From: Alphaproteobacteria bacterium
GTDB taxonomy: Bacteria; Pseudomonadota; Alphaproteobacteria; Geminicoccales; Geminicoccaceae
NCBI GenBank assembly: GCA_030431615.1
Contig: JAUIID010000020.1
Span: forward strand, 1-41,442
Length of the DNA stretch: 41,442 nucleotides
Direction: 5' to 3'
How positions within the stretch are numbered: the first letter of the stretch is position 1; each line of letters starts with the position of its first letter. Positions 4,206 through 10,407 of this stretch are shown here, one piece after another. The translations under genes and the position numbers were made by a program. The notes beneath the pieces were generated by a model. That model saw only the letters and a list, made by a program, of their open reading frames with translations. It was not told the origin of the DNA and made no database searches.

Positions 4206-4967
4206 ATGGATCTCGGGCTCAAGGGTCTCAGGGCAATCGTCACCGGTGGCACCAAGGGCATCGGCCGCCGCGCGGCCGACATCCTCGCCGACGAGGGCTG
4301 CCATGTCAGCGTGTGCTCGCGCCACGAGGGCGAGGTGAAGGACTGCGTCGCCGCCCTCGAGAAGAAGGGGGTGAAGGCACACGGCTCGGCCCTCGACGTC
4401 GCCGACAAGGCCGCCCTCGAAGCATGGGTGGCGAGTGCCGCCGCCGAGCTCGGCGGCATCGACATCGTCGTCGCCAATGTCTCGGCGCTCGCCGGCGACG
4501 GCACCGAGGAGGCCTGGCAGAAGCAGTTCGAGGTCGACGTCATGCACACGGTGCGTACCGTGAATGCCGCCATGCCGCAGCTCGAGGCGTCGAAGGCCGC
4601 CTCGGTCGTCATCGTCTCCAGCGTCTCCGGCCGCGAGGTCGACTTCTTCGCCGGCTCCTACGGCGCCACCAAGGCCGCCCTCATCCACTACGCCCACGGC
4701 CTCGCCTGCCAACTCGCCCCGAAGAGCATCCGGGTGAACTCGGTCTCGCCCGGCAATGTCTATTTCAAGGACGGCATCTGGAACTCGATCGAGACCGACA
4801 ATCCGGACCTCTTCAAGGCCGCCCTCGACCTCAACCCGACCGGCCGCATGGCGACCGCCGAGGAGGTCGGCCGCGGCATCGCCTTCCTCGCGAGCCCGGC
4901 CTCGAGCTTCACCTCCGGCACCAACCTCGTGATCGACGGGGCGCTCACCAAGGGCGTGCAGTTCTAG
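4206..4967 (+). CDS. SDR family NAD(P)-dependent oxidoreductase
   Basis: Classical short-chain dehydrogenase/reductase of 253 residues, the usual length. The Rossmann cofactor motif TGGTKGIG is at residues 13-20, the structural NAG-like block is VANVSA near 90, catalytic serine is in SSVSG near 138, and the catalytic tyrosine and lysine are Y152 and K156 in SYGATK. The C-terminal TSGTNLVIDGAL is the standard SDR ending. The ATG at 4206 follows a GGGAGCAG ribosome site. It lies between two amide-hydrolysing enzymes, so it probably oxidises or reduces an intermediate of the same pathway; the substrate cannot be told from sequence. The NNAG motif of the family is altered here to NVSA. Confidence 0.92.
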   Translation: MDLGLKGLRAIVTGGTKGIGRRAADILADEGCHVSVCSRHEGEVKDCVAALEKKGVKAHGSALDVADKAALEAWVASAAAELGGIDIVVANVSALAGDGTEEAWQKQFEVDVMHTVRTVNAAMPQLEASKAASVVIVSSVSGREVDFFAGSYGATKAALIHYAHGLACQLAPKSIRVNSVSPGNVYFKDGIWNSIETDNPDLFKAALDLNPTGRMATAEEVGRGIAFLASPASSFTSGTNLVIDGALTKGVQF

Positions 4968-4976
4968 GCCCCCTCG

Positions 4977-6245
4977 ATGCCAGGCGCCGCCGAAGGGGCG
5001 GGCTTCCCGGACCGTGCGGCGGCGCTGAACGAGCGCTTCCACTGCTTCGTCACGCTCACCCCCGACGAGGTCTCGACCGGCACCGGGCCGCTCGCCGGCG
5101 TGCCGGTGGCGGTCAAGGACTGCATCCCGATCAAGGGTGTCGCCTGCACCTGGGGCAGTGCCGTCTTCAGGGACCGCATCGCCGCGGCCGACGCCCCCGT
5201 CGTGGCGCAGCTCCGCGAAGCCGGGGCGCGCATCGTCGGCACCGCCAATCTGCACGAGTTCGCCTTCGGCGGCACGACGCAGAACCCCTGGTTCGGGAAC
5301 TGTCGCAACGCCTGGAATCCCGAGCGCGTGCCGGGCGGGTCGAGCGGCGGGTCCGCCGTGGCGGTGGCCCTCGGCCTCGCCGCTCTGGGCGTCGGCACCG
5401 ACACGGGCTGCTCGGTCCGCCTGCCGGCCTCGCTCAACGGCCTCCTCGGCCTGCGCCCGACCCACGGTGCCATCTCCAACCGGGACATCATGCCGGTGAG
5501 CCCACCGCACGACACAGTGGGCTTCATCGCCGCCGACACGGAGACGATCCGCCGGGCCTTCGCCGCCACCTGCCGCCTGGACCCGGCCGATCCCTTTTCC
5601 CGCCCCGCCGCGGCCTTTGCCAACCCCCAGCACATCAGGCTCGGCGTCGCCAGCGCGCTTCTCGCGGCAACCGAGCCCGACATCCGCGAAGCCTTCGAGC
5701 GCGCGGTTGCAAGGCTCGAGGCCCTGGGCTGCACGGTCCGGGCCATCGCCGAGCCGGCCCTCATCGAGGCGGCCATGCACATCGCCCCGCTCGCCATGGC
5801 CGACATGGCCGAATTCCATCGCCAGCGCCTCGCCCATGACGCGGATCGCATCGGCAGCGCCATCCACCAGCGCGCCGCCCGCGGCCTTGCCATGCCGGCC
5901 ACCGAATATGCCGGCCACCTGCGCTGGCGCGAAAACAACGGCGCGGTCATCAACGGGCTCTTCGAGTCCGTTGACGCCATCCTCTCGCCCACCGTGCCGG
6001 TGACCGCCCCGACCCTCGCGGAAGCGGCGGACGCGGTGGGCAGCACAGCCCTCCTCAGCCGCAATTGCTGGGCAGCACCCGCGGCCGGCATCCCCGCCCT
6101 GACGGTGCCGTGCGGCCGGGACCGCCACGGCATCCCCATCGGCCTGCAGCTGATGGGCAGGGCCTGGGCGGAGCCCTTCCTCCTCGACCTCGCCACGCTC
6201 TTCCTCGGCCAGGATGGCCCCGTCCCGTTGCCGGTCCAGACCTGA
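4977..6245 (+). CDS. Amidase signature family enzyme
   Basis: Serine amidase of the amidase-signature superfamily, 422 residues. The Ser-cisSer-Lys triad is visible: Lys47 in VAVKDC, the cis-serine in PGGSSGGS (residues 122-123) and the nucleophile Ser146 in GTDTGCSVRLPAS. The usual GTDTGGS carries Cys instead of the second Gly at 145, which is tolerated in some members. The C-terminal GIPALTVPCG and PIGLQLMG blocks are also typical. The gene starts nine bases after the SDR stop with no obvious ribosome site, which suggests translational coupling or a slightly different start. With the acetamidase-like enzyme it gives the locus two unrelated amide hydrolases. It is not GatA: there is no gatB or gatC nearby. 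Confidence 0.9.
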   Translation: MPGAAEGAGFPDRAAALNERFHCFVTLTPDEVSTGTGPLAGVPVAVKDCIPIKGVACTWGSAVFRDRIAAADAPVVAQLREAGARIVGTANLHEFAFGGTTQNPWFGNCRNAWNPERVPGGSSGGSAVAVALGLAALGVGTDTGCSVRLPASLNGLLGLRPTHGAISNRDIMPVSPPHDTVGFIAADTETIRRAFAATCRLDPADPFSRPAAAFANPQHIRLGVASALLAATEPDIREAFERAVARLEALGCTVRAIAEPALIEAAMHIAPLAMADMAEFHRQRLAHDADRIGSAIHQRAARGLAMPATEYAGHLRWRENNGAVINGLFESVDAILSPTVPVTAPTLAEAADAVGSTALLSRNCWAAPAAGIPALTVPCGRDRHGIPIGLQLMGRAWAEPFLLDLATLFLGQDGPVPLPVQT

Positions 6246-8954: not shown

Positions 8955-9296
8955 CTATCCGACCGTCGACATCGGCCGGTCCCGGGTCGGCAGCCGCCGA
9001 ATATCGGCACCCGACGTCCGCTCGGCCACCGCGACATCGAACTGTGCCTGCAGGTTCAGCCAGAACTGGGGCTCGGTGCCGAACCAGTGGCCGAGACGCA
9101 GGGCGGTATCGCCCGTGATCGAGCGCTTGCCGGCAATGATCTGGCTCACCCGGTTCGCCGGCACGTCAATCTGCCGGGCAAGCTCGGTCGGCGTGACCTC
9201 GAGCTCGATCAGTTCGTCCTTGAGAACCTCGCCGGGATGCACGGTTCGCGTCAGCATCGTCTCATCCACATCGAGCTTACCGATCATTGATAGCAT
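8955..9296 (-). CDS. higA: HigA-family antitoxin (XRE-type helix-turn-helix)
   Basis: Up to 113 residues; helix-turn-helix repressor of the HigA addiction-module family. Family marks are TVHPGEVLKDELIELEVTP, the recognition region ARQIDVPANRVSQIIAGKR, then SITGDTALRLGHWFGTEPQFWLNLQAQFD. Starts at 9296 and 9287 (MIGKLDVDE) are both possible; GGGGAG of a ribosome site lies within the preceding small ORF. The expected partner toxin HigB, normally encoded just upstream as a protein of about 90 residues, is absent. The upstream neighbours are instead a 37-codon ORF that overlaps by 20 bases and a NYN-domain protein. Expected role: binds its own promoter and neutralises a linked toxin, here perhaps the NYN protein. 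Confidence 0.88.
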   Translation of the reverse strand: MLSMIGKLDVDETMLTRTVHPGEVLKDELIELEVTPTELARQIDVPANRVSQIIAGKRSITGDTALRLGHWFGTEPQFWLNLQAQFDVAVAERTSGADIRRLPTRDRPMSTVG

Positions 9297-9390
9297 GCTC
9301 CCCGGATGCGATACGCTGAACGGTTACCCCTTCCCGCTCCACCACGTATTGCGCCAGCGTGGCGGCAAGGAAGACGCCGGCGTTAGCCAT
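9277..9390 (-). CDS. Short ORF overlapping both NYN gene and higA
   Basis: 37-residue ORF (begins MANAGVFLAATLAQYVVERE). Its ATG overlaps the last eight bases of the NYN gene in the arrangement ATGGCTAA, and its end overlaps the higA start by 20 bases, a layout typical of translational coupling. A GGAA-type ribosome site within the NYN gene's end is weak. The peptide has an amphipathic, mostly hydrophobic N-terminal half and a charged C-terminal half. I do not recognise it. It may be a real small protein, a leader that couples higA translation to the NYN gene, or a chance frame. Confidence 0.4.
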   Translation of the reverse strand: MANAGVFLAATLAQYVVEREGVTVQRIASGEHAINDR

Positions 9391-10231
9391 CAGCTTCTTC
9401 GTCGTCACGGCGAAGCTGATCCTGGCGCAAGACCGAGACCAGACCATCGATGTGCTCGAACAAATCGTCGCCGACCTGCTGCCACATGGGGTCGAGGATG
9501 AACTCGACACCCTCACGCCGGGCGAGTTTGGCGGCGGGCACGAAGTCGCTATCGCCGGTCACGAGGATGATGGTGTCGGCCTGCTTCTTCAGCGTGATCG
9601 ATGCGATGTCGAGGCCGATCCGCATGTCCACGCCCTTCTGGCGCAGCCCGAGTGCCACGTCGGCGTCTCCAAGTTCTCGCCAGGCGGTAATCACGCCGGC
9701 AAGCCCGCGTCTTTGCTCTGCGGTCGGCACGTCCGCATCTCTCCCATCGAGCGCCGCCTCCAGAAACGGCAGGCAGTCCCTGGTCTTGAGCAGACGCTTG
9801 GTCAGCCGGGCCGCAATCTGCCACTCGCTCTCCTTGCTGACCTTGCCGAGTCGCAGCGCGAACTTGCGTTTCTGGCGAAGGGCCTGAAACAACGCCTCAC
9901 GAAAGGCGGCCTGCTCGGTGCGCGCGTACTCGATTCGACGATTGGCCAGAGGATGATGCGAGACACCATCGTACGGGCGGGCATCGTAGTAGAACAGCCG
10001 GTAGACGTGATCGAGCCAGCGGCTCGGGTTGGCGTTATTCCTTTCGCCAATCAATCGTTGGACATGTCGCTTGCAGAGAATGCGCGCGGTTTCCCCAACG
10101 GCCTCTGGTGTGCCGCGAAACTGTTCGCCGACCACACGCGGCAGCCGCTTGATGAAGAAGCCGCCGTCGATGAGGACCGCTATCCGCCGAACCCGCACGA
10201 AGCCGCCCCCGAAACAAAAAAAAGGCCCCAT
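9383..10231 (-). CDS. NYN-domain protein (LabA/DUF88 family, predicted PIN-like RNase)
   Basis: Predicted Mg-dependent ribonuclease of the NYN (COG1432/LabA-like) branch of PIN-fold enzymes, 282 residues. The acidic active-site positions are present: Asp in VLIDGGFF near residue 22, acidic residues in KGVDMRIGLDIASI, and Asp residues in ILVTGDSDFVPAAKLARREG. A central helical, basic region (about 60-190) is extra. Two starts are possible: ATG at 10231, or GTG at 10198 (VRVRRIAVLIDGG), which has a GGGGGCGG stretch upstream and begins right at the conserved core. The segment between them contains an 8-base homopolymer at 10216-10223. Third-position GC is lower than in neighbouring genes, as expected for transferred DNA. 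The gene is followed by a short ORF and higA with overlapping ends, suggesting a toxin-antitoxin-like pair. Confidence 0.82.
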   Translation of the reverse strand: MGPFFCFGGGFVRVRRIAVLIDGGFFIKRLPRVVGEQFRGTPEAVGETARILCKRHVQRLIGERNNANPSRWLDHVYRLFYYDARPYDGVSHHPLANRRIEYARTEQAAFREALFQALRQKRKFALRLGKVSKESEWQIAARLTKRLLKTRDCLPFLEAALDGRDADVPTAEQRRGLAGVITAWRELGDADVALGLRQKGVDMRIGLDIASITLKKQADTIILVTGDSDFVPAAKLARREGVEFILDPMWQQVGDDLFEHIDGLVSVLRQDQLRRDDEEADG

Positions 10232-10282
10232 GCTTTCTGCACACGCTCGGGATAGCTGAGCGGGCGTACTTGCAAGGGGCGG

Positions 10283-10303
10283 ATGTCCTGATAATTAGGA
10301 CAT
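10283..10303. promoter_or_regulatory. Operator-like palindrome upstream of the NYN/higA module
   Basis: 21-bp near-palindrome with arms ATGTCCT and AGGACAT around an AT-rich centre. It lies 52 bases upstream of the NYN ATG. A TTGACA hexamer (minus strand, 10313-10308) sits directly beside it, although no well-spaced -10 is obvious. This is where a HigA-type repressor would be expected to bind. Confidence 0.55.
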
Positions 10304-10407
10304 TCTATGTCAAAATGCAACCAACACAGAGACAGCTCGCGCTAGATCCGCCGACTGAAAATACCGATGACGTGCCTAAACGACCATCCTTTCAGCTCCT
10401 TTTTCAG

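What the first reader, a model, noticed from the sequence alone, without database searches (positions are those of the whole stretch)
8955..10303. Candidate new toxin-antitoxin pair: NYN-domain RNase with HigA-type antitoxin
HigA normally pairs with HigB, which is absent. Here higA follows a NYN/PIN-like predicted RNase with intact acidic motifs, through a 37-codon ORF that overlaps both genes (8 and 20 bases), and the unit starts with an operator-like palindrome. Gene order (RNase first, repressor second), overlaps and lower GC bias fit a mobile TA or defence module. That the NYN protein is the toxin is inference.
Basis: partly seen in the sequence, partly recalled or inferred. Interest (0 to 1): 0.72.

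Follow-up and report, generated by a model that had tools for sequence, protein, structure and literature searches.

The report
NYN ribonuclease with structured RNA partner
The gene is one of a widespread family of mobile RNA-cutting enzymes, each preceded by a small, strongly conserved folded RNA that probably keeps the enzyme in check; the neighbouring antitoxin-like gene higA looks like a chance neighbour.

Summary
HigA follows NYN in none of 17 other genomes of the class, 80 genome loci or 80 viral loci, and 20 of the 29 nearest HigA relatives sit behind HigB. What recurs is a ~68-nt structured RNA directly upstream of NYN (window 10285-10218, minus strand). It lies upstream of NYN in 78 of 80 genome loci (one of the other two has no upstream DNA) from at least seven phyla, and a related RNA in 47 of 69 viral loci. 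Stems covary strongly, AGUA/GA single-stranded bases are fixed, promoters cluster 5-8 nt upstream, and a U-tract ends it before the start codon. In Gram-positive phages the position is filled by Rfam TEG147, an orphan Staphylococcus aureus sRNA already seen by RNA-seq. The unit is mobile: 34 of 80 genome loci lie between a type III restriction Res gene and its methylase; others sit beside phage repressors and integrases. Best reading: a type III-like toxin-antitoxin or abortive-infection module, NYN as RNase toxin, RNA as antitoxin. The RNA-NYN unit is shown by comparative sequence; toxicity and neutralisation are inferred. Window higA is probably an orphan.

The parts
10218..10285 (-). Conserved structured RNA (R1 element): outer stem GCCCC/GGGGC, inner hairpin CGCTC/GAGCG, conserved AGUA and GA, U-tract at the 3' end
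   Evidence: R1 85.3 bits, E 2.3e-25 (the window is a member of the model's alignment); fold z -2.9; covariation in 61 sequences
10286..10330 (-). Presumed promoter region of the RNA (weak match to consensus in the window itself)
   Evidence: promoter clustering over 80 upstream regions; strict scan of the window finds none
10283..10303 (.). Palindrome ATGTCC-9-GGACAT overlapping the presumed -10 region; an overlapping GACAT-3-ATGTC lies next to it
   Evidence: sequence; similar GACATAATGTC in L030 and L084
9383..10198 (-). NYN-domain ribonuclease gene, phrog_5783 family, GTG start
   Evidence: PF01936, phrog_5783 E 3e-70, AF2 model pLDDT 93 with NYN/PIN fold, Z 15 to 2qip and MARF1 NYN
9277..9390 (-). 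37-codon ORF of unknown meaning, overlapping NYN and higA
   Evidence: no homologue
8955..9296 (-). higA, orphan HigA-type antitoxin/regulator; probably an incidental neighbour
   Evidence: TIGR02607; nearest relatives sit behind higB; absent beside NYN elsewhere

Best explanation
A mobile two-part RNA-protein module. One promoter transcribes a short folded RNA whose outer stem plus U-tract also works as an intrinsic terminator; occasional read-through makes the mRNA of the NYN endoribonuclease. The abundant RNA binds the NYN protein through its fixed single-stranded bases (AGUA, AU in the hairpin loop, GA before the closing strand) and holds it inactive, as ToxI does for ToxN or RCd22 for AbiF. 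When transcription or RNA stability is disturbed (phage infection, loss of the element, attack on the partner restriction system) free NYN cuts RNA and stops growth. Shown: conserved covarying RNA upstream of NYN, same strand, promoter and terminator layout, intact NYN active site and fold, mobility, defence/prophage context. Inferred: toxicity, binding, neutralisation, the trigger. HigA in the window plays no necessary part.
For: RNA upstream of NYN in 78 of 80 genome loci. Covariation: 97.3% of cells paired vs 86.4% shuffled, 100 double-change cells vs 24.6, 0/500. Viral set: 47 of 69 loci have R1 upstream; 151 double-change cells vs 34.2, 0/500. Fixed unpaired bases in both sets. -10 ends 5-8 nt before the RNA in 55 of 80; T-rich tail in 58 of 79. 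TEG147 matches upstream of NYN in 10 of 12 viral loci, 4 above gathering; Teg147 is an expressed 60-nt sRNA of S. aureus HG003 (PMC5826253). Active-site acids invariant in 45 of 45. R-M context 34 of 80, lysogeny region of phages, conjugative plasmids. RNA copies without intact NYN exist, one with NYN broken, as expected if the toxin is lost first.
Against: No experiment on toxicity or binding. No tandem RNA repeats in most loci, a hallmark of known type III antitoxins; only L102 has two R1 copies, and L009 looks like two by eye. Five R1 places of at least 37 bits have no NYN at all, so the RNA may have other jobs. Divergent NYN loci (L028, L121, L122, L124, L125) do not match R1, though hairpins are visible there. 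The window's own promoter matches the consensus poorly.
Confidence: 0.62

Rival explanations
1. The RNA is only a cis-acting leader: an attenuator/terminator that NYN binds or cleaves to control its own expression; NYN is a non-toxic RNA-processing or defence enzyme.
For: In cis, same strand, terminator-like, close to the start codon; Rfam types TEG147 as Cis-reg; a CRISPR-associated NYN protein is proposed to trim crRNA (PMC11346440, abstract).
Against: RNA copies persist without intact NYN; single-stranded bases are fixed across phyla beyond what a terminator needs; Teg147 is listed as a bona fide sRNA.
Confidence: 0.2
2. The RNA is an activator, guide or scaffold: NYN and RNA form an effector complex that attacks phage or plasmid RNA, not a toxin-antitoxin pair.
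For: Link to R-M genes and prophages; RNA-guided evolution of the AbiF/Cas13 line is described for another nuclease (PMC12373285, passages).
Against: No variable spacer-like segment: loop and junction bases are fixed or short.
Confidence: 0.12
3. One reading: NYN toxin with HigA protein antitoxin and operator binding by HigA.
For: Overlapping genes in the window, HigA family E 4e-27, palindrome at the promoter.
Against: HigA beside NYN in 0 of 17 other class genomes, 0 of 80 genome loci (only hit 5 kb away), 0 of 80 viral loci; 20 of 29 nearest HigA relatives follow HigB, none NYN; GACAT/ATGTC operator-like sites also occur at L030 and L084, where no HigA was found.
Confidence: 0.05

Closest known systems
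Type III toxin-antitoxin systems ToxIN/CptIN/TenpIN
   Same: One promoter, RNA antitoxin gene, Rho-independent terminator, endoribonuclease gene downstream; phage and plasmid carriage (PMC5086642, passages)
   Different: Toxin has NYN/PIN fold, not the ToxN/MazF-like fold; RNA is a single ~60-70-nt unit whose own outer stem is the terminator, not tandem repeats
AbiF with RNA RCd22 (Rfam RF03085 abiF)
   Same: Structured RNA directly upstream of a toxic protein, promoter before and terminator after the RNA, prophage-borne (PMC12373285, passages)
   Different: [quoted passage not shown] the Rfam abiF model does not match the window RNA
Rfam RF03535 TEG147 (S. aureus small RNA)
   Same: Same layout (outer stem, AGUA, inner hairpin, CGA, U-tract) and same position upstream of NYN in phages; L261 matches both models
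   Different: Rfam names it after S. aureus and no partner gene is given in the passages read; the window element does not reach it
phrog_5783 / NYN (PF01936, LabA-like)
   Same: The window NYN belongs to it
   Different: Family has no known function in PHROGs
HigBA
   Same: HigA present
   Different: No HigB; NYN precedes HigA only here

Membership tests
Type III toxin-antitoxin system | Small RNA gene directly upstream of the toxin gene on the same strand | tested here: met
   78 of 80 genome loci
Type III toxin-antitoxin system | Rho-independent terminator between RNA and toxin gene | tested here: met
   GC-rich closing stem plus T-rich tail in 58 of 79; termination itself not measured
Type III toxin-antitoxin system | Antitoxin made of tandem repeats | tested here: not met
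   Single copy in nearly all loci; two R1 copies only in L102
Type III toxin-antitoxin system | ToxN/MazF-like toxin fold | tested here: not met
   Model is NYN/PIN (Z 15 to 2qip, 14.9 to MARF1 NYN)
Type III toxin-antitoxin system | RNA neutralises a toxic endoribonuclease by binding it | not testable with these tools
   needs expression and binding assays
HigBA type II toxin-antitoxin system | HigB toxin gene next to higA | tested here: not met
   none at the window locus; PF05015 matches only on other contigs, C130, C214, C72, C252
NYN-HigA as a recurrent pair | Linkage in other genomes | tested here: not met
NYN / phrog_5783 family | NYN domain with invariant acidic residues | tested here: met
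   PF01936 37.2 bits, cut-off 24.2; phrog_5783; D8, D188, D194, D213, D215 in 45 of 45
Rfam RF03535 TEG147 | Score at or above the gathering cut-off | tested here: not met
   window: no match; 4 viral NYN loci pass

The most novel reading that the evidence does not exclude
An unrecognised, cross-phylum class of RNA-antitoxin systems built on NYN nucleases, of which the orphan S. aureus sRNA Teg147 is one member; when lodged between res and mod genes it works as a guard that kills the cell if the restriction system is lost or blocked, as the anticodon nuclease PrrC guards a type I system (PrrC recalled, not tested).
Probability: 0.3. Interest if true: 0.9.

Novelty: new variant of a known kind. 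Interest (0 to 1): 0.78.

Why it matters
It would add a nuclease fold (NYN/PIN) to the RNA-neutralised toxins, give a partner and a function to an orphan sRNA family (TEG147) and to an unannotated phage protein family (phrog_5783), and explain a gene lodged between the two halves of many type III restriction systems. All of this is directly testable with a two-plasmid experiment.

Tried and rejected
NYN-HigA pairing: tested in three sets and rejected. HigA remnant of HigB in the 37-codon ORF: no similarity seen, no homologue found. Rfam at gathering score for the window: none. Weak R1 matches L114-L117 (20-27 bits) and L175-L183, L185 (29 bits and below): no NYN found; treated as chance. DUF3800 in L173: suspected by eye from a recalled motif, Pfam gave no match for the 84-aa fragment, so not claimed. 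Foldseek alone ranked sirtuins first at E>=0.002; the realignment put NYN structures clearly first. Exact viral pattern for the chromosomal RNA: no match; BLAST of the TEG147 consensus in phages and plasmids: no match. Strict promoter scan of the window: none. Solved-structure sequence searches with NYN: none. Literature: ten searches; nothing in their listings links NYN to an RNA antitoxin; the library lacks most subscription papers and bioRxiv, and the large structured-RNA survey I looked for was not held.

Rows dropped: A3 uses 61 sequences (window, L002, 59 of the 80 loci); the other 21 were L088-L090 and L092-L109, of which 19 were found with R1, L099 was not found and L106 has no upstream DNA. 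A5 uses 46 of 47 R1-positive viral loci (L243 left out, near copy of L237) and was selected by R1, so it leans towards the structure. For one search, 12 viral loci that I judged near-duplicates were left out of the 80 and L297 was added. A4 uses window plus 44 loci after one search stopped at L094; L089, L095, L099, L101 and L107 were also left out then. The tree left out L108.

Full report
What the sequence shows. On the minus strand the window holds a NYN-domain gene, a 37-codon ORF and higA, overlapping by 8 and 20 bases, between an enolase-superfamily gene and an unrelated gene. NYN is PF01936 at 37.2 bits, HigA is TIGR02607 at E 4e-27. The predicted structure of NYN is confident (pLDDT 93) and aligns with the NYN proteins 2qip (Z 15.0, 2.9 A over 152 residues) and MARF1 (Z 14.9), well above the unrelated rows. 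The acidic residues D8, D188, D194, D213 and D215 (model numbering) are invariant in 45 of 45 relatives. The ATG at 10231 lies in an upstream RNA element; the GTG at 10198 fits the conserved start of relatives.

HigA is not the recurrent partner. In 289 genomes of the class, 18 including the window's own hold a NYN match at E<=1e-5; of these, HigA lies beside NYN only in the window. In 80 genome loci the only HigA hit is 5 kb away on the other strand (L075). In 80 viral loci there is none. HigA itself is common (92 of 289 class genomes); of the 29 nearest relatives examined, 20 have a HigB-like gene directly upstream and none has NYN. The window's genome holds PF05015 (HigB) matches on other contigs, two of them next to a HigA match (C130, C252). 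The simplest reading is an orphan higA that came to lie behind NYN.

A structured RNA is the recurrent partner. Aligning the DNA upstream of NYN showed a conserved element also at distant NYN genes. Among 80 NYN loci from 84,980 genomes (the best 80 of 192 relatives), 59 carry it in the alignment A3 (each also found by R1) and 19 more by covariance model at E<1e-6; L099 has no R1 match and L106 has no upstream sequence. In A3 (61 sequences) the structure of 14 pairs has 97.3% of cells paired (shuffled 86.4), 100 double-change cells (shuffled 24.6, 0 of 500 as high) and loses its pairing when slid by one to three columns. Unpaired AGUA, AUC in the hairpin loop and GA are nearly invariant. In viral contigs 47 of 69 NYN loci have an R1 match (E<=0.015) directly upstream; in 46 of them (A5, selected with R1 and therefore leaning towards the structure) the outer stem changes freely but stays paired: 151 double-change cells against 34.2 shuffled, again with GUA, AU and GA fixed.

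Transcription layout. In 80 upstream regions (79 loci and the window) the best sigma-70 match averages 8.61 of 12 against 7.27 in shuffles, and the -10 ends 5-8 nt before the element in 55 of 80. The 3' strand is followed by a T-rich tail in 58 of 79, and a median of 32 nt separates the RNA from the first matched NYN codon. So promoter, RNA with its own terminator, then NYN. The window's promoter itself is a poor match.

Link to a known sRNA. The RNA upstream of NYN in Streptococcus phage Javan85 matches Rfam TEG147 at 52.6 bits over the full model (gathering 56.1), and 10 of 12 viral NYN loci given have TEG147 matches ending within about 60 nt of NYN, 4 of them above gathering. TEG147 shares the layout with R1: outer stem, GAGAGUA, inner hairpin, CGAAAUC, U-tract. 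Teg147 is listed among bona fide sRNAs of S. aureus HG003 at 386294-386353, 60 nt (PMC5826253, passages), and as expressed from a genomic island (PMC3053349, passage). I could not check which gene follows it in S. aureus.

Mobility and defence context. In 34 of 80 genome loci the unit lies, same strand, between a Res-like helicase (PF04851) and a type III methyltransferase (PF01555; PADLOC MTase_III 1315 bits for L031); 4 have only Res, 2 only Mod, 40 neither, some because contigs end. Viral locus L220 has the same order, Thermus plasmid L026 has helicase-NYN-methylase, and L100 has an MmeI-type enzyme upstream. On the NYN tree the R-M context changes at least 14 times over 66 labelled rows, and phylum at least 9 times; the window's five nearest rows (L030, L049, L031, L032, L033) are all R-M loci, yet the window has no Res or Mod. 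In lambdoid phages NYN follows the repressor gene, in other phages it lies beside an integrase; 73 of 5426 complete E. coli genomes hold at least 80% of the ev099 locus. Tblastn finds NYN relatives in 162 plasmid records, 128 of them typed conjugative.

RNA without NYN. In 398 genomes of the phylum R1 has 16 places of at least 37 bits: 10 precede NYN, 1 precedes a NYN broken after its first residues (L162), 5 have no NYN (L167, L168, L169, L171, L173). In the class set all 4 places of at least 46 bits adjoin NYN. Orphan RNAs fit an antitoxin that outlives its toxin but also allow other roles.

Mechanism. The layout equals that of type III systems and of AbiF-RCd22, where the RNA both limits toxin transcription by termination and binds the toxin (PMC5086642; PMC12373285; passages read). 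A NYN ribonuclease of a CRISPR locus cuts ssRNA without sequence preference in vitro (PMC11346440, abstract). I therefore propose RNA-neutralised NYN toxin, probably for abortive infection or element maintenance. Toxicity and neutralisation are not shown.

Is it a type III member? It works like one on layout, but two usual features, tandem repeats and the ToxN fold, were tested and not met, so it is a new variant rather than a member of the described families. In ten literature searches I found no paper that links NYN to an RNA antitoxin; the library is incomplete.

Noticed in passing
window 10283-10315: Two overlapping inverted repeats with half-sites GACAT/ATGTC at the RNA promoter; L030 and L084 carry GACATAATGTC at the same place, so an unknown repressor may control the RNA.
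   Followed up: partly
L173:1501-1619 (-): R1-like RNA (37 bits) directly after a weak abiF RNA match (34.6 bits, gathering 37), between HsdM-like and HsdS-like ORFs (named by eye), with no NYN.
   Followed up: partly
L102:4695-4762 and 4911-4978: Two tandem R1 copies upstream of one NYN gene, the only clear repeat seen by model.
   Followed up: no
L167: Orphan R1-like RNA beside an array of CRISPR-DR16-like repeats, followed by a small antitoxin-like ORF (named by eye); the same genome (G453) has another R1 with NYN.
   Followed up: no
L168 and L280: An IrrE-type (Peptidase_M78) gene follows an orphan R1 RNA in L168 and follows NYN (weak match) in L280.
   Followed up: no
L002:640-1221: Nearest class relative of NYN (68% identity) is followed by a VapBC-like pair (named by eye), a second toxin-antitoxin unit in the same place as higA in the window.
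   Followed up: no
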